A stretch of DNA of 64,000 nt, taken from contig NC_087076.1 of NCBI RefSeq assembly GCF_026151205.1, forward strand, positions 13,315,675-13,379,674, written 5' to 3'. The translations under genes and the position numbers were made by a program. A model generated the notes under the pieces. That model ran no database searches, was not told the origin of the DNA, and saw only the letters and a program-made list of their open reading frames with translations. Below are positions 3,201-60,316 of this stretch, piece after piece (the first letter of the stretch is position 1; each line of letters starts with the position of its first letter). Source of the stretch: Bolinopsis microptera. Its lineage: Eukaryota; Ctenophora; Tentaculata; Lobata; Bolinopsidae.

Positions 3201-6200
3201 TTTGGCGGAAAAATTTTTTTAATTTTCGAAATTTTTTGTAAGTCTCGAAAAAAAAATGTAAGTGAAAAATTTTAAAATTTTTTCTAAAAACTACTTTTCT
3301 CCGTGTTTTAAGCTATTCCGATCATTTTTAGCCAATAAAAATTTTTTAGAATTTTGCTAATTAGTTAATTGATAATTATCCAATTAACTTATTATCTGAC
3401 GTAAAAATTGTTTGAACAAAAGTTTTTCTTCCTGATAATATGAACACACTCGATTGATCCGCAACCTTTTACGATGTTCACAACTAAAGATATTCGACAA
3501 ACAAAAAAGGTGGTAAAAAGTGGTAAAGTGGCAAAAAGTGGCCTTAAGACAAGTGGAAAAGTTTGGAAAAGTTGGTCAGCCATAAAGGGCACCTAATGGG
3601 ACTCAAAAACGTCAAAAAACCTCTGAAAGCTTGGAGTGTCAGCAGATCGATTTTTTTAGACGGATCTGTCTGTACTAGTTTGAGAATAATTCAAAACGAC
3701 GATTAAAAAGCTATTTAGTCAGAGTCGTAGTTTTATTCTCTTAGAAATGGGTCCTCTACAGGAACATTGCAGGAACAGTGCACATCTTTTCACATTTGTG
3801 CATTGTGCAATATATTACTTAGTGTAAGGAGTGTCCCTAAACTCCCTTTTAAAGTATGTGACTAAAACATTTAGGTGCCTAGTCGACTTGCAGTGTAGAT
3901 AAGTCAGATTATTCGTTGCAACCAGTAAACAACCGGGGGTAGGATTTGGCCGGGGCCGGGGCCGGGAATGTCCAAATTTTGCCGGGGCCGGGAATTGGCC
4001 GTTCTGGAATTTGGCCGGGGCCGGGGCCGGGCCGTGAATTTAATAAATCCACGGCCAAGTTAGAACTTTTCAGGACTTAGGATCTGAACTTATTTTTACA
4101 TGACATTATAATGTTCGTATCAATTGAACAGTTTAGAAGGTAATTAGATTTCATATATAATATTTTGGTAAAATAATTTTGTTCAGCTGAAACAGTAAAT
4201 AAAAGTTGGCACTCTGGACATCATCCTTTCAAAATTGAAAATCCATTTTAAGATTTATATGAAAGTTTTAGGCCGATTTCGATCAAAAATTCCCGGCCAA
4301 ATTCCCGGCAAAAATTGAAAATCGGCCGGGGCCGGGAAGAAATAGCTCCCCCGGCGCCGGGATTTCACGGCGCCGGGAATCCCGGTCGATTACTGGTTGC
4401 AACCTCCAAAATTACAAGAGCCATATCTAACAATACCCCACCCAGGTTCCCAAATTACAAGAGCCATATCTAACAATACCCCACCCAGGTTCCCAAATGT
4501 AGGAAAGTCCTCTTTTGTAAACCAGATAACACGCGCTAACGTGGAAGTACAGCCGTACGCGTTCACCACAAAGTCGCTCTACGTGGGACACACTGACTAT
4601 CAGTATTTGAGATGGCAGGTTATTGATACTCCTGGGATACTTGACAAGCCCCTGGAGGACAGGAATACTATTGAGATGCAGGTGAGTGCGGGAGTGCTGA
4701 ATAAGTGCTGAATTAGTGCTGAATTAATGCACTTTAAATAAGTGCTGAATTAGTGCACTTTAAATTAGTGCTGAATAAGTGCACTTTAAATTCTTACAAT
4801 TCTCATCCTTTATAAAATAGCACAGCTCTTAGTCCCAGACTCCCATGATCTTTGTAGGGGTCAACTTATTTCCAACGACGAGGCTGATATAAGAATGGCG
4901 TGTTTATTAAAGTATCTCATCGTACCTCTCCATACTAAACAAAATTCGTTCTTCAGGCCATCACTGCTCTAGCGCATCTACGCGCGTGCGTGGTGTGCGT
5001 CCTGGACATCAGCGAGCAATGTGGATACTCTCTGAAACAGCAGTGCGAACTGTTCGACAACATCAAGCCACTCTTCGCTAACAAGCCTATCATTGTAGCT
5101 CTCAACAAGATCGATGCTAGGAAACCTGAGGATCTCTCTCAAGAGGAAAAGGTTTGTTTAAATAATCTGATAAGGTTGGATAATTTTATGAATGTGCCAT
5201 GTGTGTGCAATTGATTGTACAGCTTATGTTTTTGACCTTTTTACTGAAAACTTATTTTATTTTAAATTTTATCGGATGTTTTCTGATTAGAATCGAGTCA
5301 CATACAACTTTTATCGAAAACTTAATCTTATCGGCTAATAGAATTTAATTCAATTATTACCTAGGTAATTTCACAAGGTAGTTAAATTAATCATATTAAA
5401 TTAATGCCTTTGAGCGTTCATTTTAATGTCCGTTCAAAATTATGTCCATTTACGAAATGTCCGGTCAAATAACGTCCGATTTCTGCTAGAACCGAGTCAC
5501 ATACAACTTTTATCGAAAACTTAATCTCATAGCTATAATAGAATTTAATTTAGTTATTTACCTGGGTATTGTTTGAATATATTAAGGAAATTACTATCAC
5601 AAACTATACTTCACCAAGAGATGTTATTTTATCACGTTATTATGAAGTTATAACAACCTCTTCTCTACAGAATCTACTAGAAGAGACGTTTAAGAAGAAC
5701 GCAAACGTGTTGGTTATCCCAATGTCCACTCTGACTCAGGAGGGAGTGTCTGAAGTACAGAACACAGCCTGTGATGCTCTTCTTGCTCACAGGATCGAGC
5801 AGAAGATGGCAGGAAACAAGGTCAATAATATATGTACCTTGTTTCAAACTCTTTTTTCTCAAAACTTACATTTTTTTTCAGTAAAGAAAAATTAATAATA
5901 CAGTTTTATGTGGTCTAGAGTAAACCAAGACTATCATTGCTGAAACTTATGTTTAAACAGGTTGAAAACATCCTGAACAGACTTCACGTAGCCGTCCCCA
6001 AAGCTTCCCAAGAAGTTCGAGCACCCCACATTCCGCAAGGAGTACTTGCCCGCCGTGTTGCCGGATACGTTAAGCCTGCTGAGATACGCAAGTTGGAGCG
6101 AGACATGGAACTGGAGTTGGGAGATGATTATATTCTCGACCTTAAGAAACACTACGATCTACCTAATCCTGATGATAAGTATGTGAAGCCGCCTTTAAAT

Positions 6201-7889
6201 ATTACTTTTGTAATATTTTAATCTATTTTAAAGTTGGGAATATTGCACCAAATTGGTCGAGAGGGGGGCCCCTCGAGACAAGTTTATAGCCTGATTGTTT
6301 AGGCGATCACACATCAACCATAAAAACTACTGTTTAGCAACCTTTATATTATCATTAGTTACGAGCTTTGTATTTCAGGTATGATGACATTCCAGAAGTT
6401 TGGGAAGGGCACAACATCGCTGATTTTGTCGACCCAGATATTGTGACTAAACTAGATGAACTGGAGAAGGTAGTATTACCCAGCATTTATTGTTATATTC
6501 TACAAATAAGTAGTGTTATCTTGGCCTCTTCAACAATCAACATGATATATTATCCTCAATTTATAATATTTCTATCCAATGATTGGTCTGATTTCAATTA
6601 TTACTTAAATTCCCCTGCACAGGAAGAAGCGATGCTAGAAGAAGCAGGTGTTTATGAAAGTGAAGATGAGAATTTGACGGAGGAGCAAAAGGATATACGA
6701 GAAAAAGCGGGTCTCATAAGAAAAGAGAAGGCCATAATCCGACACAAACATAGACTTAACAAACACAGGTATTTCGTGTTTATTCCCTCTTTTGCGCACG
6801 TTTGTACTTAGTTGGCAGCACCCATTTCTTCCCACGAGTGTAATTTAATGACAAATTGTTAAAATTCCTAGAAACCGCAAGAATTAGCCTATTTAAAAAA
6901 GTAAACATTCTTAAGTATTGGCATTGGTAAGTGGCATTTCTACTTACCATTGCAAAAATCTCAAGAATTGGAATTGCCACTAACCATCGAAACACACTTT
7001 TCAGTAATCGAACCCCAATGAGTGAAAGGGTGGTCAGGAAGAAACAGGGTATAAAACGTGCCCGAAGTATATCCAGAATGTCCCAAGACGAGTCCATGGA
7101 GGTTGATACTAAATTCCAGACGAAGAAAGTAAAGCCCGGTCGGGACGTCAGTGGTCTCCGAGATGCAAAAATGGTCAGTTTTAGGAAGTTGTTCTGTGGT
7201 TGACTCTCCCCTGTGTGGGTTTGGTGTTATTGTGTAGCACTATCACAAGTGTCAGCATAATGTTATCTTAAATGATGGGTGGAAGTGTTTAAATAATCAA
7301 CCTTAGTTGTCTTAAGCCTTGGCAAGGCTGCCTTGCTCTAAGGAAAACCACGAAGTAAGCTATGAATATCGCGCGTTATTAAGCGCGTAATTCGGCCTGT
7401 TTCATTCGGATTTGTTACATCGCGCCACGCGGGTGTCGTTTTTAACAAAGAAAGCACATTTTTAGTGCTGATCAGCACATGTCACTTTATATATTTTGTA
7501 CGCGCGTCCACGCCTCTCAAATTAAACGTGGTGCAGGCAGGGGCTGAGGGGCCACCCTTAATTTCCAAGTGGCCTGGCTTGGGTCTAACTCATAATCCAC
7601 GGTATAATATCATTACATAGCATATCGTGGGCGTAGCATTTAATAACGTATTCAGTCCTCGACACCCACACATGCCGTGCGTGATGCGCGCTGTTCAGGC
7701 ATTATAGTCTTACGTAATTCAGTTAATACTAGCCGACGGATATGACTACACATTATATTATTATAATAATAAATTATGTAATGGAAATAATAAGTAACAT
7801 TTTAACAATAAACCATATTAGAAAGCCGTGCTCACTACCATTTTGTTCAGGTCAAAGAAGTTCGAAAAAAGATGAAGAAATCTCAATAA
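259..7889 (+). CDS. GTPBP4: NOG1 / GTPBP4 nucleolar GTPase, 9 exons, 5' partial, 3' end damaged
   Basis: NOG1 is a nucleolar GTPase that acts in 60S ribosomal subunit biogenesis. Exons read from splice sites and conserved protein: 259-459, 4489-4681, 4957-5151, 5671-5820, 5961-6178, 6379-6469, 6623-6768, 7005-7173 and 7851-7889; phases agree at every junction. Exon 1 gives [17 protein letters not shown] and [18 protein letters not shown]. The P-loop NVGKSS (4495-4515) is completed across the first intron, followed by the switch/G3 segment DTPGILD, NKID (G4) in exon 3, the STLTQEGV segment in exon 4, ARRVAGY and [10 protein letters not shown] in exon 5, WEGHNIADF in exon 6 and [11 protein letters not shown] in exon 8. 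The N-terminal ~110 residues lie upstream of the window. The last exon starts [12 protein letters not shown] and then meets TAA; the expected KMN-FGK-GEADR continuation can be read only by changing frame twice, right where sequence quality collapses. I infer sequencing error rather than true loss. Identity is secure. Confidence 0.95.
694..3676. mobile_element. Foldback-type element with ~948-bp terminal inverted repeats
   Basis: The arm 694-1641 reappears in reverse complement at 2728-3676 with only scattered mismatches; the outer ends read AGTACAGACAGATCCGTC and its complement. A second, more diverged inverted pair lies inside (about 1650-1850 against 2300-2480). The flanks allow a TA target duplication (TA|GTACAG ... 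CTGTAC|TA), but this is not certain. No transposase ORF is present, so the element is non-autonomous. It sits inside the 460-4488 intron of the NOG1 gene. The near-identical arms suggest recent insertion or gene conversion between arms. Confidence 0.85.
2535..2625. repeat. Two tandem copies of a 44-bp unit
   Basis: TTTGAATGACAGGATGG begins at 2535 and again at 2579; the copies differ at one base (ATTACTGAG / ATTACCGAG). The duplication lies in the right half of the foldback element, between the inner and outer inverted repeats. Confidence 0.85.
3923..4395. mobile_element. hAT-type MITE, 473 bp, with 8-bp target site duplication
   Basis: The element starts CAGTAAACAACCGG and ends CCGGTCGATTACTG, giving short inverted termini that begin with CAG. 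It is flanked on both sides by the same 8 bases, GTTGCAAC (3915-3922 and 4396-4403). An 8-bp duplication with CAG-type ends is the hAT hallmark. The ends are packed with GGCCGGGG and CCCGGC runs that can pair; the centre is AT-rich. It has no coding capacity and lies in the NOG1 intron, 85 bp before an exon. Confidence 0.85.
4410..4495. repeat. 43-bp tandem duplication covering a splice acceptor
   Basis: ATTACAAGAGCCATATCTAA and the following CCCCACCCAG|GTTCCCAAA occur twice, 43 bp apart. The second CAG (4486-4488) is the acceptor that fits the NOG1 frame. The first (4443-4445) is an identical potential acceptor whose use would shift the frame, because 43 is not a multiple of 3. Confidence 0.8.
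7174..7850 (+). other. Last NOG1 intron
   Basis: GTCAGT donor at 7174 and TTTTGTTCAG acceptor ending at 7850. Nothing coding is seen. The only structure noted is a perfect 14-bp palindrome, GTGCTGATCAGCAC, at 7465-7478. Confidence 0.6.
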
Positions 7890-7932
7890 AGATGAACCAG
7901 TTTGGAAAGGGCTGGTGAACGATCGCTTTTGA

Positions 7933-7957
7933 AAAAAAAAAAAAAAAAACAACCCCC

Positions 7958-7988
<31 letters not shown>

Positions 7989-8499
7989 GAAAAAAAAAAA
8001 AAAAAAACCCCAAACACCAAAAAAAAAAAAAACAAAAAAAAAAAGGGGGGGGGACGACCCAATAAAAAAAGGAAGGGGGGGACCCCCTTTTTGGGAAAAA
8101 AAAAAAAAAAAAAAAGGGGAAAAAAAAAAAAAAAAAAAAAAAAAAATCAAAAGGCAAGGGGCCCAACCCCCAAGGAAAACCCCCCCCCCTTTTTTCCGCC
8201 CTTTTCCCCACAACACCGCCCCCAAAAAAAAACCCCCCCCCCACCCCAAAATTTTTTAAAACCCTCCACCCCCAAAAACGGGGCCGGGGCCCTCCCCCCC
8301 CCCCCCCCCCCTTTTTTCCCAAAACCCTTTTTCCAACTTTTCCCAAAAAAACTTTCCCCCCCCACCCCCCCCACCCTTTCGGCATTATAGTCACTAACCA
8401 AAAAACCACATTCCCAAAAATTTTTTTTTTTTAAAAAAAAAATTACAAAAAAAACCAAAAAACCCTCCCCCCCCCGGCCAAAAAAAAATTCCAAAAAAA

Positions 8500-8532
<33 letters not shown>

Positions 8533-9640
8533 ACCGTTCCCCAAAAGGGGCCAAAAACGACCAAAAATTTTTTTTTTGGGGGGGCCCCCCCCCCCCCCCC
8601 TTTTTTTTTTCCCACAAACCAAAACCCTCCCCCGGGGTTTTTTTCCCAAAAAAAAAAACCCTTCCCCCCCCAAAAACCCCCCAAAAAAAAACCACCCCCC
8701 CCCCCCCCCCCCAAACCCCAAATTAAAACCTTTTCAACCCCCCCCCAAAACCCCCCCCCCCTTTCTAAAACGAACCCAAAAAATTAAAAAAACCTTCCCC
8801 CCCCCCAAAACCCCCCCCCCCCCCCCCCCCCAAAACCCCCCCCCCAACCCCCAAAAAACAACTGGCCCCAAAAAACAAACCCCCACCCTTTTCCCCCCCC
8901 CACCCCCCACCCCAACTTTTCCCCCTTTTTTTAAAACCAAAAAACCCCCCCCCCCCCCCCCCTTTTTAACCCAAAAAAAACCTAATTTATGAAAATTTTT
9001 TTTAAAATTTTTAAAAACCAAAAAAAACGCCGGTTTTTAAAATTTATAAAAAAGGGGGACTGATCTAAGTCAAATTTTCCCTTTAAATTACTTTTTTTCC
9101 CTTCGACCTGTTATTTCCCCCCAAACCGCTAAGACCCCTAAAATAGGAAAATTTTTTAAAATTTAAATTTTCGTAAAACCCCAGGTTATCCCCCGGGGGA
9201 AAGGTAACCCCCTTTTTTTTAAACGAAATATTTTGTTCAAAAACCAAAACCGGGTTTTAAAAAAATATTTCTTAAAAAACCCCAAAATTTTAAAAAGGGC
9301 TGGGGCCAGGAATGCCCAATTTTTAGGGGAGCCTCGTTTAGGGGTAAGTCTTCCTTTTTTTGGAAATTAAAAAATTTTGTTTTTTGGGTAAATTTTTAAA
9401 ATTTAAATTTAAATTAAAAGCCTTTATTAAATTTTGAAATTTAAACTTTTAAATTTCTTTTGGCCCAAACGTTAAATTCCAGTTAAAACGGGATGGGTAA
9501 AAAAAAGACATACCAGGGGGGGTAACCGGGGATTTAAAATTTAAAAATAACCTAATTTAAATTTTAAAACCATGTTTTTTTATTTTGTTTTATTTTGGTT
9601 TTCCCCCTTTTTTTTTTAAAATTTTGGTTAAGATTTCATT
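7933..9640. other. Homopolymer-dominated, probably erroneous sequence
   Basis: From 7933 to about 9060 the sequence is almost only runs of A, C, G and T of 4-40 bases, with no biological structure I can recognise. Homopolymer inflation then fades and ends near 9640. It starts inside the final NOG1 exon just after two apparent frameshifts. This pattern fits unpolished or mis-called long-read sequence, or a failed consensus. All long ORFs here (poly-Lys, poly-Phe, poly-Gly, poly-Pro) are artefacts of the runs. Confidence 0.8.
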
Positions 9641-19930: not shown

Positions 19931-22034
19931 ATGTTACTACCTTTAGTTTCCCTCTTAGTCATAGGATCGTTTCCTGCTACTGTAGAGGCAGATGAGCACA
20001 GAGCATTAAGATTTGGTCAAAGCACTGCCGACTATATAGAGTGGTCTCCGAACATGGCCCCTTTTACAAGGCAGTTCTCTGTCTGTACTTGGCTTAAGAA
20101 GAGACATCAGTCATCAAATCCAATAGTTGTGAACTACCATCCTTACAGTCACGGTATGCTATTTGGTGATAACGGTGTTTATAACCACGTGGTAGGTTCT
20201 GGTATTTCTCTGCAGAGCGAGTACAACGTGCCTGATGGAGAATGGTTTCACGTCTGCTGGTTATGGAGTTACTCTAGTTACACCCTCACCGTCTACCTGA
20301 ACGGAGAGATTATAGGATCTACAGCTACTAATGAGAAGGAGCTGAGGACAGGAGGAACAATGTGTCTTGGTAACTATGCTGGGGTTAAGGTTTCTGGTCA
20401 CACTTTCGGTGGTGACTTGTTCAAGTTGAACCTATACAGTAGAGTTTTAACAGACACTGAAATCCGAAACATGGCCTCTGATATATGTTCTAACGAGGAG
20501 GAGAGTCTAAACTCAATAAGAAGTCTAAGGTGGGAAAGTATAATGTTACAGGAGAGAAGTGGCTCTGTGACTGAGATAACTGGTTGTCCTTCTCCTGAAG
20601 AGATTGAAGCTGGAAAACGGGCTAAAATGCTGAGGCTCATTGATGAAAGACTGGAGACATTTGAGAGTAGGTTACAGAACACCGAGCAGGAGTTGGCAAG
20701 AACCAAAACTAATTTCATACAATCTGATAAAAAGTTAAAGAATGTTACCGCATCCCTCACAGTAACTCAGGAAAAGCTAAAGAACTCTGAGCAAGAGCTA
20801 ATATAACAGAGACTAAGTCTAATCTGAATCAGCAATTAGAAAATGTTATCACCTCCCTGACAGGTACCCAGAATAAGCTTAACGACACTGAGCAAGAGCT
20901 AGCAGAGACTAAGTCTACTCTGAATCAACGACTAAATCAAACCGAGAATAAGTTGGAAAATGTAACCACATCTCTCAAAACCACCCAAGGAAAGCTAAAG
21001 AACTCTGAGCAAGAGCTAACAGAGACTAAGTCTAATCTGAATCAGCAATTAGAAAATGTTATCACCTCCCTGACAGGTACCCAGAATAAGCTTAACGACA
21101 CTGAGCAAGAGCTAGCCGAGACTAAGTCTACTCTGGATCAACGACTAAATCAAACCGAGAGTAAGTTGGAAAATGTAACCACTTCCCTCACAAGCACCCA
21201 AAATAAGCTTAACAACACAGAACAAGAGCTAGCCGAGACTAAATCTACACTGAATCAGCGTGTTAACCAAACTGAAAAGAATTTGCAAGCTGTAACAAAG
21301 TCCCTTACCACCACCCAGGTCGAGCTAAATGCTACAAGACAAGAATTGGCAGGAGCAAGAAATTCTCTCGGAATGCTAACCACATCCTTCATCACCACCC
21401 AGGAAATGCTAAAGAACTCTGAGCAAGAGCTAGCAGAGACGAAGTCTACCCTGAAGGTATTTGAAGAGAAGTTAGGAAGTTTTAACTTCTCCCTCACAAG
21501 CACGCAAAAAGAGATGTCCAACACGCAACTTGAGCTTACAGCGACAAAAAATAATCTCACACAGCAATTAGAAAGTGTCGCCGTGTCCCTGAACCATACC
21601 CAAGAGGAGCTGGATGCAGCTACAAAGAACAAAGTCCGCAGCAAGTGGGACGTGCTTTTCTCGGACAGGTTTTTCAACAAGCAACTTACTATGGAGATGT
21701 CTCAAGAACTCAAATCAGCATGGGATATTCTAGGTAATTTCTCTCTTTTAATTAGGTTGTCTAGTAATCTTATGAAATGTTTCGTTTTCGGAGAATAAAT
21801 ATTTTTGCATGGATTGCGTAATGTCTTAATATCACGGCATAAATTTAAGACCTTTTTAAATAACTCCTTTTTTGTCTAGTAGTAAGTAATAGAAATAACA
21901 CTGTTTTAAGTTTAACATCTTTCCTTTCAGATCTGTTTTTAGGAGCAAACATAACCGAACCAGTTATCGAACACTTAAAGCAACAGCACGAGCCTAGAGA
22001 AATGGTCTGTCCGGAAACTGACAGTATTCTTTGA
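19931..22034 (+). pseudogene. Pentraxin-like/coiled-coil secreted protein, paralog 1, frame broken by a 5-bp insertion
   Basis: Exon 1 runs 19931-21733 (donor GTAATT), exon 2 21931-22034 with stop TGA. Residues 1-20 are a signal peptide (MLLPLVSLLVIGSFPATVEA). Residues ~24-205 resemble a pentraxin/LamG-like jelly roll: FSVCTWLKK, WFHVCWLWS (close to the pentraxin signature H-x-C-x-S-W-x-S, with Leu for Ser), LTVYLNGEIIGS, GGTMCLGNY and LNLYSRVLTDTEIRNMAS. Then comes a coiled coil of 32-39-residue repeats (NVTTSLTSTQNKLNNTEQEL) full of N-x-S/T sites, then exon 2 (GANITEPVIEHLKQQHEPRE). At 20796-20806 the sequence CTAATATAACAGAG stands where sister repeats have CTAACAGAG; these 5 extra bases create TAA and shift the frame. 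Without them the frame is open to the end, so this is either a young mutation or an assembly error. Likely a secreted multimeric lectin-like protein; ligand unknown. Confidence 0.75.
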
Positions 22035-22863
22035 ATGCTCCAGAAGTGATATTTTTAGAATAGCTGAACTTGTCTTAACATTTTCATTTTGAATGGACCT
22101 TTCTTTACTCAACTTTTAAATTGACCTTGGATACATCTCTTTTTAGCAAAATCTTAATCGTATAGTAGTGACGGATTCGCGTTCGATAGTTCTACTTTAT
22201 TAATATTATCATACAATCATTCAAGCTACGCTAGAGTTTTATGAGCATGTACTATAAATACAAATAATCATAAACAATATTGATTATTAATGAATTTAGA
22301 ACCTATGCGATAGTCGTTAATTGTAAAATATGAGGCATTGGTAATGGTGCATTTCTGAGTTCGACCCAATGTACATTATTCGCTAATCAAAAAGTCGTAA
22401 TATTGAATATAATCTTATTTTGACAATGTAAACTCGGCAATAGTCTACTGTACTCAACACGGAGTCTCAGCAAGTATCCGAGACATAGAATTCACTCTAT
22501 AGCTTGATCCTGCTGGGTAATGTGTTGTTACTTGTTCGTGACCAGATTCCTACTCACTCCCACACTGTCGATAAAACCTTAGTAATCAGCATTTTCACCC
22601 ACTACACTGAATCTGTACATCGGATAACCCTCCAATAAACCTGCTTCAACCCGAACTTTGCTGTCACGTGACCTCCTAGTTGCGCTGTTATTGGATCCCA
22701 GATGAAACTGTAGTAATTCTTATCATGAGCCAAGAACAGTTCTAGAAAAATAGAGCCCCTCGGTTCTTAAAACATAATACGTTTCTATGCAAACTCCGCT
22801 TTTTATTTTTTGTTTGTCGAAGTGTTCCCAGTCTATAAAACACACCACAAAATACCTAGGAAA

Positions 22864-23932
22864 ATGTTACTTCCTTATCTCCTCCTTTTAGTCATAGGAT
22901 CGTTTCCTGCTACTGTAGAGGCAAATAAGCACAGAGCATTAAGATTTGGTCAAAGCATTGCCGACTATATAGAGTGGTCTCCGAACATGGCCCCTTTTAC
23001 AAGGCAGTTCTCTGTCTGTACTTGGCTTAAGAAGAAACATCAGTCATCACATTCAATGGTTGTGAACTACGAGCCTTATAGTTACGGGATGATATTAGGT
23101 GACAATGGTGTTTATAACCACGTGATACTTGCTAGTATTAATCTGAAGAGCGAGTACAACGTGCCTGATGGAGAATGGTTTCACGTCTGCTGGTTGTGGA
23201 GTGCCTCTAGTTACACCCTCACAGTCTACCTGAACGGAGAGATTATAGGATCTACAACTACTCGTCATATTGAGTTGAGAACAGGAGGAACAATGTGTCT
23301 TGGTAACTATGGTCCGAGTAAGAGTTCTATTTACACTTTCGGTGGTGACTTGTTCAAGTTGAACCTATACAGTAGAGTTTTAACCGACACTGAAATCCGA
23401 AACATGGCCTCTGATATATGTTCTAACGAGGAGGAGAGTCTAAATTCAATAAGAAGTCTAAGGTGGGAAGATATAATATTACAGGAGAGAAGTGGCTCTG
23501 TGACTGAGGTAACAACTGGTTGCTCTCCTGGAGAGATTGAGGCTAGAAGAAGACTGGAGACATTTGAGAGTAGGTTACAGAACACCGAGCAGGAGTTGGC
23601 AAGAACCAAGACTAATTTGATACAATCTGATAAAAAGTTAGAGAATGTTACTGCATCCCTCACAGCAACTCAGGAAAAGCTAAAGAACTCTGAGCAAGAG
23701 CTAGCAGAGACTAAGTCTAATCTGAATCAGCGATTAGAAAATGTTATCACCTCCCTCACAAGTACCCAGAATAAGCTTAACGACACTGAGCAAGATCTAG
23801 CAGAGACTAAGTGTACTCTGAATCAACGACTAAATCAAACCGAGAATAAGTTGGAAAATGTAACCACATCTCTCAAAACCATCCAAGAAAAGCTAAAGAA
23901 CTCTGAGCAAGAGCTAGCAGAGACAAAGTCAT
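22864..23932 (+). CDS. Pentraxin-like/coiled-coil secreted protein, paralog 2, C-terminally truncated
   Basis: I chose the start at 22864 because MLLPYLLLLVIGSFPATVEA aligns with the starts of both paralogs; an upstream in-frame ATG at 22810 lies in the shared 5' region. It has a signal peptide, a pentraxin-like domain (FSVCTWLKKKH, WFHVCWLWS, GGTMCLGNY, RVLTDTEIRNMAS), and then about four coiled-coil repeats. The coil ends QELAETKS followed by TAA. Directly after AGAGACAAAG the sequence joins TCATAACCGAACCAGTTATC, which is exon 2 of paralog 1. The rest of the coil, the intron and the start of exon 2 have thus been deleted, and the joint creates the stop. The product would be ~355 residues without the C-terminal segment. 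It may still be secreted, but its assembly could differ. Confidence 0.75.
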
Positions 23933-24030
23933 AACCGAACCAGTTATCAAACACTTAAAGCAACAGCACGAGCCTAGAGAAATGGTCTGCCCGGAAACTG
24001 AGAATATTCTTTAAATGCTTCAGAAGTGAT

Positions 24031-24583
24031 ATTTTTTCCCGATCCATGACTCAAGTGCCGAAGGCACAAAAGAGTCAAGGACAAGGGTTAGCGATCGAGG
24101 TTTTTTTTGGGATATGGTAGCTTTGCGACCGTACCTGCGTGCGAGCGTGCGTGTCTGCGTACGTTTCGCCCACGTGTCTGCCTGCGCAAAGTTATTTTGC
24201 GCGAAAATCTGAATTAAACAATTGTTGGCGCGCGGTGCTGAAATGTTCAAGTACATTGTTAATTTCATCATGTACGCATCCCGCTAGGGACTAATTGATA
24301 GCATATTATTATTATTTTGAGTTAGTATTACTATTTTGCACAGATCCGTGTCAGGTTGCATAAACAATAAACATATGGTTACATAGAAATATACACGATT
24401 TTCAAATTAAATATGGAATTATATCAACTGGGCGGCGCTCGGCCTGTCGCTTCGCCATATCTGCATGCTTATAAACAGTAAAGACTGGGGTCCACAGGTG
24501 GTATGGAATATGATCAAATACTCCATCACGGATCGGGAAATTGAGCGGCCATCCACAAAAGAAAAGCGGCCGCATTTCTTGTT
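24031..24583 (-). mobile_element. 553-bp interspersed element, copy 2, with readable empty site
   Basis: Identical by eye to 11951-12503. The uninterrupted paralogous site in unit 1 reads GATATTTTTAGAA (22047-22059). Here it reads GATATTTTT, the element, then TTTTTAGAA, which implies a target duplication of about five T (five A on the element's own strand). The A tail on the minus strand and the A-rich target fit retroposition. Confidence 0.75.
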
Positions 24584-25399
24584 TTTAGAAACTGAACCTA
24601 TCTTAACATTTTCATTTTGAATGGACCTTTCTTTACTCAACTTTTTAATTGACCTTGGATATATCTCTTTTTAGCAAAATCTTAATCGTATAGTAGTGAC
24701 GGATTCGCGTTCGATAGTTCTACTTTATTAATATTATTATACAATCATTCAAGCTACGCTAGAGTTCTATGAACATTGAACATGTACTATAAATACAAAT
24801 AATCATAAATAACAATAATTATTAATGAATTTAGAGCTTATACGATGGTCGTAAATTGTAAAATATGAGGCATTGGTAATGGTGCATTTCTAAGTTCGAC
24901 CCAATGTAAATTATTCGCCAATCAAAAAGCCGTAATATTGAATATGCTCTTATTTTGACAATTTAAACTCGGCAATAGTCTACTGTACTCAACACATGAC
25001 TACATACGGAGTCTCAGCAAGTATCCGAGACATAGAATTCCCTCTATAGCTTGATCCTGCTGGGTACTGTGTTGTTACTTGTTCGTGACCAGATTCCTAC
25101 TCACTCCCACACTGTCGATAAAACCTTAGTAATCAGCACTGCCACCCACTGCACTGAAGCTGTCAATCGGATAACCCTCCAATAAACCTGCTTCAACCCA
25201 AACTTTGCTGTCACGTGACCTCCCAGTTGCACTGTTATTGGATTCCAGATGAAACTGTAGTAATTCTTATCATGAGCCAAGAACAGTTCTAGAAAAAATA
25301 GCGCCCCTCGGTTTTTAAAGCATAATACGTTTATATGCAGACTCCGCTTTTTATTTTTTGTTTGTCGAAGTGTTCCCGGTCTACAAAACACCCAGGAAA

Positions 25400-26176
25400 A
25401 TGTTACTACCGTTAGCTCTCTTCTTAGTCATAGGATCGTTTCCTGCTACTGTAGAGGCGAATAAGCACAGAGCATTAAGATTTGGTCAAAGCACTGGTGA
25501 CTATATAGAGTGGTCTCCGAACATGGCCCCTTTTACAAGGCAGTTCTCTGTCTGTACGTGGTTAAAGAGGAGACATCAGTCATCATATCCAATGGTTGTA
25601 AACTACTATCCTTACGAGTACGGGATGATATTAGGTGATAACGGTTATTATAACCTAGTGGTAGGTTCTAGTCTGCATCTGCAGAGCGAGTACAACGTGC
25701 CTGATGGAGAATGGTTTCACATCTGCTGGTTGTGGAGTGCCTCTAGTTACACCACTACAGTATACCTGAACGGAGGGATTATAGGATCTACAGCTACTAA
25801 TGAGAGGGAGCTGAGAACAGGAGGAACAATGTGTCTTGGTAACTATGCTGGGGGTAAGAGTTCTCAATATACTTTCGGTGGTGACTTGTTCAAGTTGAAC
25901 CTATACAGTAGAGTTTTAACCGACACTGAAATCCGAAACATGGCCTCTGATATGTGTTCTAACGGGGAGGAGAGTCTAAACTCAATAAGAAGTCTAAGGT
26001 GGGAAAGTATAATGTTACAGGAGAGAAGTGGCTCTGTGACTGAGATAACTGGATGTTCTCCTGAAGAGATTGAAGCTGGAAGACGGACTAAAATGCTGAA
26101 GATCGTTGAAGAAAGACTTGAGACATTTGAGAGTAGGTTACAGAACACCGAGCAGGAGTTGGCAAGAACAAAGTGA
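25400..26176 (+). CDS. Pentraxin-like secreted protein, paralog 3, 3' truncated
   Basis: Start at 25400 (MLLPLALFLVIGSFPATVEA) by alignment with the paralogs. The signal peptide and the full pentraxin-like domain are intact (FSVCTWLKRRH, WFHICWLWS, GGTMCLGNY, RVLTDTEIRNMAS). The coiled coil has only begun (RLQNTEQELARTK) when TGA follows at 26174. Identity with paralogs 1 and 2 stops at the same place, 14 bp before the indel-rich block at 26191. The stop therefore comes from foreign sequence, by rearrangement or misjoined assembly, rather than being a natural end. Confidence 0.75.
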   Translation: MLLPLALFLVIGSFPATVEANKHRALRFGQSTGDYIEWSPNMAPFTRQFSVCTWLKRRHQSSYPMVVNYYPYEYGMILGDNGYYNLVVGSSLHLQSEYNVPDGEWFHICWLWSASSYTTTVYLNGGIIGSTATNERELRTGGTMCLGNYAGGKSSQYTFGGDLFKLNLYSRVLTDTEIRNMASDMCSNGEESLNSIRSLRWESIMLQERSGSVTEITGCSPEEIEAGRRTKMLKIVEERLETFESRLQNTEQELARTK

Positions 26177-59035: not shown

Positions 59036-59329
59036 GTGAAAATCAAAAATATATTCTAAGTTATTCACAAAAACACTCGATTTTCGAACTTTTTATTTGG
59101 AACAGATTTGTCGAAAGTCCTTCTGCAAAATTCTTCCAGGGGTTATTATACCGCAGCAGCGACAACATTTTAATATGCAACATTTTCATGGCAGTTGTGC
59201 AGAGCGACATTTTAGCTCGTATAGTACATTATGGCGCGCGCGCGCAGCGCAGTGTTCGATCATATGTATCATGCCGGAACAAGGAAAAACGCCATCTTTA
59301 AGGACGCGAAGATCAGAGAGTTAGGACTC

Positions 59330-60316
59330 AACTCCTCGAGACTCTACTCCTTCGAGACTCTGCTCCTTCGAGACCCTGCTCCTTCAAGACTCTACTCCTT
59401 CGAGACTCTACTCCTTCGAAACTCTACTCCTTCGAGACTCTGCTCCTTCGAGACCCTGCTCCTTCAAGACTCTACTCCTTCGAGACTCTACTCCTTCGAG
59501 ACTCTACTCATTCGAGACTCTAATCCTTCGAGACTCTGCTCCTTCGAGACTCTACTCATTCGAGACTCTAATCCTTCGAGACTCTGCTCCTTCGAGACTC
59601 TACTTCTTCGAGACTCCACTCCTTCGAGACTCTACTCCTTCGAGACTCTACTTCTTCGAGACCCTGCTCATTCAAGACTCTACTCCTTCGAGACCCTGCT
59701 CCTTCAAGACTCTACTCCTTCGAGACTCTGCTCCTTCAGGACTCTACTCCTTCGAGACTCTACTCCTTCAGGACTCTACTCCTTCGAGACTCTACTCCTT
59801 CGAGACTCTACTCCTTCGAGACTCTGCTTCTTCAAGACTCTACTCCTTCGAGACTCTACTTCTTCGAGACTCTGCTCCTTCGAGACTCTACTTCTTCGAG
59901 ACTGATCTACTCCTTCGAGACTCTGCTCCTTCGAGACCCTGCTCCTTCAAGACTCTACTCCTTCGAGACTCTACTTCTTCGAGACTCTACTCCTTCGAGA
60001 CTCTACTTCTTCGAGACCCTGCTCCTTCGAGACTCTACTCCTTCGAGACTCTGCTCCTTCGAGACTCTACTTCTTCGAGACTGATCTACTCCTTCGAGAC
60101 TCTGCTCCTTCGAGACCCTGCTCCTTCAAGACTCTACTCCTTCGAGACTCTACTCCTTCGAGACTCTACTCATTCGAGACTCTAATCCTTCGAGACTCTG
60201 CTCCTTCGAGACTCTACTTCTTCGAGACTCCACTCCTTCGAGACTCTACTCCTTCGAGACTCTACTTCTTCGAGACTCTACTCCTTTGAGACTCTGCTCC
60301 TTCGAGACTCTACTCC
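59330..60316. repeat. 16-bp minisatellite, about 61 copies
   Basis: Unit CTCCTTCGAGACTCTA with variants (CTGCTCC, TTCAAGACT, CTTCTTCG, GACCCTG). A higher-order pattern is seen: the segment starting ACTGATCTACTCCTTCGAG occurs at 59901 and 60080, 179 bp apart. It follows a GC-rich start (GGCGCGCGCGCGCAGCGC at 59233). Confidence 0.92.

What the first reader, a model, noticed from the sequence alone, without database searches (positions are those of the whole stretch)
19931..26176. Tandem family of secreted pentraxin-like proteins with glycosylated coiled-coil stalks
The combination of signal peptide, pentraxin/LamG-like head, long N-x-S/T-rich coiled coil and a small conserved C-terminal exon looks like a multimeric recognition molecule analogous in plan to long pentraxins or collectins, but inverted (head first, coil after). 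Tandem copies differ most in the loops around residues 55-85 and 145-155 of the head, as expected for ligand-binding variation. This is the best candidate here for an undescribed innate recognition or adhesive system.
Basis: partly seen in the sequence, partly recalled or inferred. Interest (0 to 1): 0.65.

Follow-up and report, generated by a model that had tools for sequence, protein, structure and literature searches.

The report
Rapidly evolving comb-jelly pentraxin stalk family
A comb jelly carries hundreds of copies of an immune-type lectin (pentraxin) domain, many of them mounted head-first on sugar-coated stalks, whose binding pockets are under strong pressure to diversify, and some of these genes share a membrane anchor with scavenger receptors; this looks like an undescribed recognition system in one of the oldest animal lineages.

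Summary
The genome is the ctenophore Bolinopsis microptera. The three tandem window copies have a signal peptide, a pentraxin-family head, an N-glycosylation-rich coiled coil and traces of a conserved last exon. None of the three is intact as assembled: copy 1 has a frameshift in the coil, copy 2 a deletion, copy 3 a truncation. Intact relatives lie 200 kb away and across the genome: at least 219 pentraxin-head places, and 41 of 61 examined intact heads continue in frame into a conserved C-terminal module without a Pfam match. The head is a true but divergent pentraxin; the window clade lost the calcium loop that basal relatives keep. In three paralogue clades the variable loops evolve about three times faster than the framework (pN/pS). 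Site models find positive selection (p=2e-10, 1e-7, 0.009), and in the window clade the selected sites fall on the CRP calcium/phosphocholine pocket. Some paralogues replace the C-module with a transmembrane, tyrosine-bearing tail; at least two such fusions share a DNA segment about 90% identical with SRCR scavenger receptors. Best reading: a multimeric non-self recognition family. Immune function and expression are untested.

The parts
19931..19990 (+). copy 1 signal peptide
   Evidence: sequence; hydrophobic start, inferred cleavage before DEHRAL
19991..20590 (+). copy 1 pentraxin/LamG head
   Evidence: Pfam Laminin_G_3 2.3e-16; family profile vs PDB pentraxins 3e-20
20591..20806 (+). copy 1 start of coil; frame ends at stop 20804-20806 after a 5-bp insertion near 20800
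   Evidence: compared with the other coil repeats of the same copy
20809..21633 (+). copy 1 rest of the N-x-S/T-rich coiled coil, open in a second frame
   Evidence: (ORF 20791-21798), family statistics
21634..21733 (+). copy 1 C-terminal module, first part (VRSKWDVLFSDRFFNKQLTMEMSQELKSAWDIL)
   Evidence: family-wide conserved module
21734..21930 (+). phase-1 intron (GT-AG) inside the C-module
21931..22034 (+). copy 1 last exon (DLFLGANITEPVIEHLKQQHEPREMVCPETDSIL*)
   Evidence: homologues in paralogues
22864..23934 (+). copy 2: signal peptide, head (22924-23520), coil to stop 23932-23934
23931..24014 (+). copy 2: remnant of the last exon fused out of frame to mid-coil by a deletion
25400..26176 (+). 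copy 3: signal peptide, head (25460-26059), short coil, stop 26174-26176; no C-terminal exon found
   Evidence: L005

Best explanation
The window holds three decayed or truncated members of a large, rapidly evolving ctenophore pentraxin family. A full-length member is secreted (signal peptide). Its pentraxin jelly-roll head sits at the N-terminal, distal end of an N-glycosylatable coiled-coil stalk of about 60-470 residues. The stalk (inferred) oligomerises the heads for avidity and the glycans (inferred) keep it stiff and protease-resistant. A conserved C-terminal module without a Pfam match forms the base of the stalk and (inferred) nucleates or docks the oligomer. In some paralogues the module is replaced by a transmembrane segment and a cytoplasmic tail with tyrosines; at least two such tails share near-identical DNA with SRCR scavenger receptors, most simply by capture. 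The heads are under diversifying selection on the pentraxin ligand pocket. Most likely function: multimeric soluble and membrane-bound non-self (microbial surface) recognition, soluble forms acting as opsonins or agglutinins and membrane forms signalling through tyrosine motifs. Shown: architecture, family, tail sharing, selection. Inferred: oligomer, ligand, signalling, immune role.
For: Pentraxin homology: family profile vs PDB NPTX2 3e-20, PTX3 4e-20, CRP 7e-14; 58/58 heads Laminin_G_3 and 42/58 Pentaxin; both disulphide cysteines invariant. Stalk: sharp 3.5-residue period, sequons 3-fold over expectation, 307 of 407 sequon Asn at heptad b and 1 at a, almost none in heads. C-module: 89 of 107 places lie within 4 kb behind a head, random 0.2. 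Selection: window clade M2a vs M1a p=2e-10, omega 4.9 in 16% of sites, still p=0.002 in each loop segment with its own tree while framework segments are not significant; selected sites sit at or near CRP 60, 76, 138, 147, enrichment p=4e-7. Tail sharing: 90% nucleotide identity over 626 bp with an SRCR receptor, starting at the fusion junction. SRCR genes of Mnemiopsis respond to Vibrio (8 of 12 differentially expressed SRCR genes up; PMC11797021).
Against: No expression, ligand or challenge data. Window copies are broken. Calcium ligands are lost in the window clade, so classical phosphocholine binding is unlikely. No high-confidence structure model (pLDDT 40 and 44). Site models assume no recombination; a PHI-type test was not significant for the window clade (0.36) but borderline elsewhere (0.06, 0.05). 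Positive selection alone does not separate immunity from self recognition or prey binding. Ancestral sharing of the tails is not formally excluded.
Confidence: 0.58

Rival explanations
1. Adhesive or prey-capture/mucus lectins: the proteins are secreted from tentacle or epidermal gland cells, bind diverse prey or particle surfaces, and the glycosylated stalks form a sticky matrix.
For: Secreted, glycosylatable, very many copies; ctenophores have colloblast adhesives whose candidates are enriched for signal peptides and ctenophore-specific genes (PMC6278862).
Against: Membrane forms with tyrosine-bearing tails shared with SRCR receptors do not fit an adhesive; site-specific selection on the ligand pocket fits recognition better than bulk adhesion. 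The passages read from the colloblast paper name VWD, EGF and chitin-binding domains as the ones shared with known adhesives, not LamG or pentraxin.
Confidence: 0.17
2. Allorecognition or gamete recognition: polymorphic pentraxin heads mark individual or species identity.
For: Tandem arrays, broken copies, positive selection in loops, and paired secreted and membrane forms are typical of such systems (own knowledge).
Against: More than 200 dispersed places on nearly all chromosomes rather than one locus; no polymorphism data; tails shared with SRCR receptors point to immune receptors.
Confidence: 0.15
3. Extracellular-matrix or structural proteins evolving under relaxed constraint with gene conversion.
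For: Laminin_G-type domains and coils are common in matrix proteins (own knowledge); several copies are broken; synonymous divergence is also raised in the loops of the window clade.
Against: Framework constrained (pN/pS 0.29-0.53) while loops reach 0.86-1.30; omega above 1 in specific pocket positions survives local trees.
Confidence: 0.07
4. For the window copies alone (not exclusive of the family-level readings): non-functional relics of the family, with no functional protein made from this window.
For: None of the three is full length.
Against: All three heads are open with signal peptides and conserved framework; short secreted heads could still be made.
Confidence: 0.4

Closest known systems
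Long pentraxins (PTX3, NPTX1, NPTX2)
   Same: Pentraxin domain joined to an oligomerising coiled coil, secreted; best PDB matches.
   Different: Order inverted (head N-terminal, coil C-terminal); coil carries dense N-glycan sequons; extra conserved C-terminal module; calcium loop lost in the window clade; hundreds of copies, under positive selection in the clades tested.
Short pentraxins (CRP, SAP, Limulus SAP-like)
   Same: Head fold and conserved disulphide; in the window clade the selected sites fall on the CRP calcium/phosphocholine pocket.
   Different: Those have no stalk and bind through Ca2+; here Ca loops remain only in basal members (6 of 58).
Adhesion GPCRs ADGRG4 and ADGRG6 (N-terminal PTX domain)
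   Same: Pentraxin-like domain at the N-terminal tip of a cell-surface receptor (PDB 8b55, 6v55 matched by the profile).
   Different: Seven-helix GPCR, no coiled coil, single genes (own knowledge).
Thrombospondins
   Same: N-terminal LamG-type domain followed by a coiled coil (own knowledge).
   Different: No thrombospondin repeats or C-terminal L-lectin domain here; best matches are pentraxins, not TSPN.
SRCR scavenger receptors of ctenophores
   Same: Shared transmembrane segment and cytoplasmic tail, about 90% identical DNA in some members.
   Different: Ectodomain is SRCR plus TNFR/ephrin-receptor-like repeats instead of pentraxin plus coil.
Expanded invertebrate lectin families (bivalve C1qDC, PMC6835236 as listed; snail FREPs from own knowledge)
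   Same: Lineage-specific, tandemly expanded secreted recognition molecules.
   Different: Unrelated head folds.

Membership tests
Pentraxin family (domain) | Pentraxin jelly-roll domain by profile | tested here: met
   PF00354 above cut-off for window copy 3 (28.6 vs 25 bits) and for the copy 2 head alone (25.4), 66.8 bits for L025; copy 1 below cut-off (18.9); PDB profile match 3e-20
Pentraxin family (domain) | Conserved disulphide Cys36-Cys97 (CRP numbering) | tested here: met
   Both Cys invariant in 58 heads
Pentraxin family (domain) | PROSITE signature H-x-C-x-[ST]-W-x-[ST] | tested here: inconclusive
   14 of 58 heads match strictly; the window copies do not (HVCWLWSA/HICWLWSA)
Pentraxin family (domain) | Ca2+-binding EQD loop | tested here: not met
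   Absent in the window clade; kept in 6 of 58 heads such as L025 (DQD) and L075/L078 (EQD)
Pentraxin family (domain) | Cyclic pentameric or other multimeric assembly | not testable with these tools
   needs protein
Long pentraxin | N-terminal coiled coil followed by C-terminal pentraxin domain | tested here: not met
   Where a coil is present it follows the head in the members read
Collectin | Collagen stalk and C-type lectin head | tested here: not met
   Pfam finds only Laminin_G_3/Pentaxin and unspecific coil models in the window proteins
SRCR scavenger receptor | SRCR domain | tested here: not met
   SRCR is in the tail-sharing receptors L083 and L086-L088, not in the pentraxin proteins

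The most novel reading that the evidence does not exclude
An expanded ctenophore pentraxin-based recognition system: inverted-plan pentraxin receptors in soluble and membrane forms, diversified at the ancestral Ca/phosphocholine pocket after loss of calcium dependence, and plugged into signalling by capturing scavenger-receptor tails. It would be a functional counterpart to the TLR, FREP or VCBP repertoires of other animals.
Probability: 0.45. Interest if true: 0.85.

Novelty: new variant of a known kind. Interest (0 to 1): 0.7.

Why it matters
[quoted passage not shown] That survey screened 20 immune domains, and its listed domains include neither Laminin_G_3 nor Pentaxin. If this family is a recognition system, a very large receptor repertoire of the phylum may have been overlooked, and pentraxin-based recognition would be shown to diversify at the same pocket used by CRP. 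It gives concrete candidate genes, candidate pocket residues and a shared signalling tail to test.

Tried and rejected
AlphaFold2 on the window heads (only three close sequences were admissible) gave pLDDT 40 and 44, so it was not used as evidence; Foldseek on the second model ranks pentraxins first but with TM near 0.4. Prokaryotic relatives: none found in the GTDB contigs. Pfam for the C-module: no significant match. An exon-skipping rescue of the copy 1 frameshift was considered by eye (a GT...AG pair of 48 bp exists) but 48 is a multiple of three and cannot restore the frame. An early note gives the copy 1 insertion as 4 bp; comparison with the other coil repeats and the two frames shows 5 bp. 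Nematostella-like genome considered first and rejected: 13 large contigs, size, largest contig 26.2 Mb and Mnemiopsis-like glutamate receptors point to Bolinopsis microptera. Matches of the profile to clostridial toxin receptor-binding domains reflect the shared jelly-roll fold only. Literature searches for this family in ctenophores found no description.
Full report
Where it is. The window lies in G000:C5:13315675-13379674 of a 264.65 Mb genome. Contig C1 is 26,206,493 bases; a paper gives Bolinopsis microptera as 265 Mb, 13 chromosomes, largest 26.2 Mb (PMC11797021), and a glutamate receptor of this genome matches the Mnemiopsis leidyi receptor best in the PDB. I take the species as the ctenophore B. 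microptera.

What is in the window. Three same-strand copies start at 19931, 22864 and 25400. Each encodes a signal peptide, a roughly 200-residue head and the start of a coil. Copies 1 and 2 are 83-86% identical to copy 3. Copy 1 carries the long coil, a C-terminal module, a phase-1 intron (21734-21930) and the last exon (21931-22034), but a 5-bp insertion near 20800 puts these out of frame with its head. Copy 2 lost the 3' half of the coil and the intron by a deletion that joins mid-coil out of frame to the last exon. Copy 3 ends after a short stalk with no C-terminal exon found. The downstream frame of copy 1 stays open for over 300 codons, so that frameshift is recent or an assembly error.

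The family. A search with one window head lists 150 places (356 candidates); a search with Pfam Pentaxin finds 144. The union is 219 distinct head places on all large contigs except C12, with 11 clusters of three or more copies within 20 kb, each on one strand. I read 67 more loci around further copies (a few loci overlap). Of 61 intact heads (the three window copies among them), 60 have a signal-peptide-like start, 41 run in one frame through a stalk into the C-terminal module, two run into a transmembrane segment, and 18 do neither, the three window copies among them. In the cluster 200 kb downstream, L002 and L007 are full length, while others have stops, frameshifts or an insertion with a reverse-transcriptase-like ORF (L021): a birth-and-death array.

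The head is a pentraxin. A profile of 58 heads matches NPTX2 at 3e-20, PTX3 at 4e-20 and CRP at 7e-14. All 58 match Laminin_G_3 and 42 match Pentaxin. The two disulphide cysteines are invariant. In a tree with four canonical Bolinopsis pentraxins and human CRP, the stalk family is monophyletic (support 98); members near its base keep the calcium loop (DQD or EQD), and the window clade has lost it. AlphaFold models were poor because only three sequences could be supplied, so the fold claim rests on homology; Foldseek on the poor model still ranks pentraxins first, which I count as weak support.

The stalk is an N-glycosylatable coiled coil. Over 58 stalks (57-468 residues) hydrophobic residues repeat every 3.5 residues (power 2.53 against 0.18 shuffled). 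Sequons number 410 against 134 +/- 10 expected (4.4 per 100 residues), against 0.09 per 100 residues in the heads. With registers assigned by a simple dynamic programme, 307 of 407 sequon asparagines sit at heptad position b and one at a. The register model penalises Asn at a/d, so the informative part is the concentration at b among outer positions; related stalks are not independent, so the count is descriptive. Stalk length varies by tandem repeat number.

The C-terminal module. After the coil comes a conserved stretch (about NITRWDxLYTxxYFNKxxTEELxxQLxSSWxxLG, then after an intron KFVGVNITEGVVDHFRQYHxEPVC). It has no significant Pfam match. Its first part occurs at 107 places (E up to 0.02), 89 of them within 4 kb behind a head on the same strand, against 0.2 by chance. 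L027 has the module with almost no coil, so it is a unit of its own. Because transmembrane tails occupy the same position in other paralogues, I infer that it is the base of the stalk.

Membrane forms and tail sharing. L023, L056, L079 and L082 carry a transmembrane segment and a tyrosine-bearing tail (VAYNASSGVH...NIYENYET in L023 and L082), although the L056 and L079 frames are damaged. The same tail, 91-93% identical, ends a receptor with an SRCR domain and TNFR/ephrin-receptor-like repeats (L083) and a second one of which only the repeats were read (L090). The identity is at DNA level: L023 and L083 share 90% over 626 bp beginning at the fusion junction and running past the stop; L082 joins the same segment about 29 nt further on. 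Two different junctions suggest at least two fusion events. Sister pairs switch state: L045 (C-module) with L082 (transmembrane), L070 (C-module) with L023 (transmembrane). The clade next to the window clade has members (L016, L013) with a second type of transmembrane tail in the following exon, as do L018 and L022; in L016 it ends EEYDTVDSYEIYENLDSLK. Direction (SRCR to pentraxin) is inferred from the wider set of diverged receptors with related tails (L084-L089).

Selection. In three paralogue clades the same two regions vary. Tree-free pN/pS in the CRP ligand segments (58-83, 138-150) is 1.30, 0.90 and 0.86 against 0.53, 0.34 and 0.29 elsewhere. In the window clade the selected sites align with CRP 55, 59, 60, 73, 76, 80, 83, 138, 144, 145, 147 and 149 among others; CRP 60, 138 and 147 are Ca ligands and 76 lines the phosphocholine pocket (own knowledge). 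Enrichment near ligand positions has p=4e-7 in the window clade and 0.011 in C4; the two C7 sites are not near them; four positions recur between clades (p=0.003). Loop alignments to CRP are uncertain by a residue or two. Recombination is a risk in tandem arrays: a PHI-type test was not significant in the window clade and borderline elsewhere, and with local trees both loop segments of the window clade remain significant (p=0.002 each) while framework segments are not.

How it probably works. Shown: secreted or membrane-anchored head-first pentraxins on glycosylatable coiled stalks, diversified at the pocket. Inferred: the stalk multimerises heads, the loops bind varied glycans or other surface ligands without calcium in the window clade, soluble forms coat or agglutinate targets, and membrane forms signal through tyrosines. 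The recognition reading is favoured over adhesion because of the shared scavenger-receptor tails and the pocket-specific selection, but expression data are lacking. In Mnemiopsis, 8 of 12 differentially expressed SRCR genes rose after Vibrio exposure (PMC11797021); that is support by association only.

Known or new. I found no description in the papers held here; subscription journals are not covered. The domain is known; the inverted plan with its C-module, the scale, the pocket-directed selection and the tail sharing are, as far as I could check, undescribed. I file it as a new variant of a known kind.

Noticed in passing
L083-L090 (G000 C13, C11, C4, C1, C3): Family of receptors with SRCR domains (confirmed by Pfam in L083, L086, L087, L088; by eye in others) and many TNFR/ephrin-receptor-like repeats, with related tyrosine-bearing cytoplasmic tails.
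   Followed up: partly
L098, L099, L100, L101: Canonical one- and two-domain pentraxins with intact EQD-type calcium loops; L098, L100 and L101 end in a cysteine-rich segment.
   Followed up: partly
L011 (C2:13526106): Pentraxin head fused to Sushi repeats and TNFR-like repeats instead of a coil.
   Followed up: no
L021/L012 (C5:13574569-13575776): Pentraxin head split by an insertion with a reverse-transcriptase-like ORF.
   Followed up: no
24035-24585: About 550 bp inserted in the 3' flank of copy 2 compared with copy 1, probably a repeat element.
   Followed up: no
59225-60289: Tandem repeat array open in several frames (SRLYSFETLLLRDS).
   Followed up: no
7850-9036: Low-complexity stretch of G/C and A/T runs giving long spurious ORFs on both strands; possible assembly artefact.
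   Followed up: no
4346-6811: Exons of a NOG1-type nucleolar GTPase (NOGCT Pfam match at 5919-6218).
   Followed up: partly
C12:12.007-12.289 Mb (L091, L092): Isolated short, partly broken C-module-like matches without pentraxin heads.
   Followed up: no
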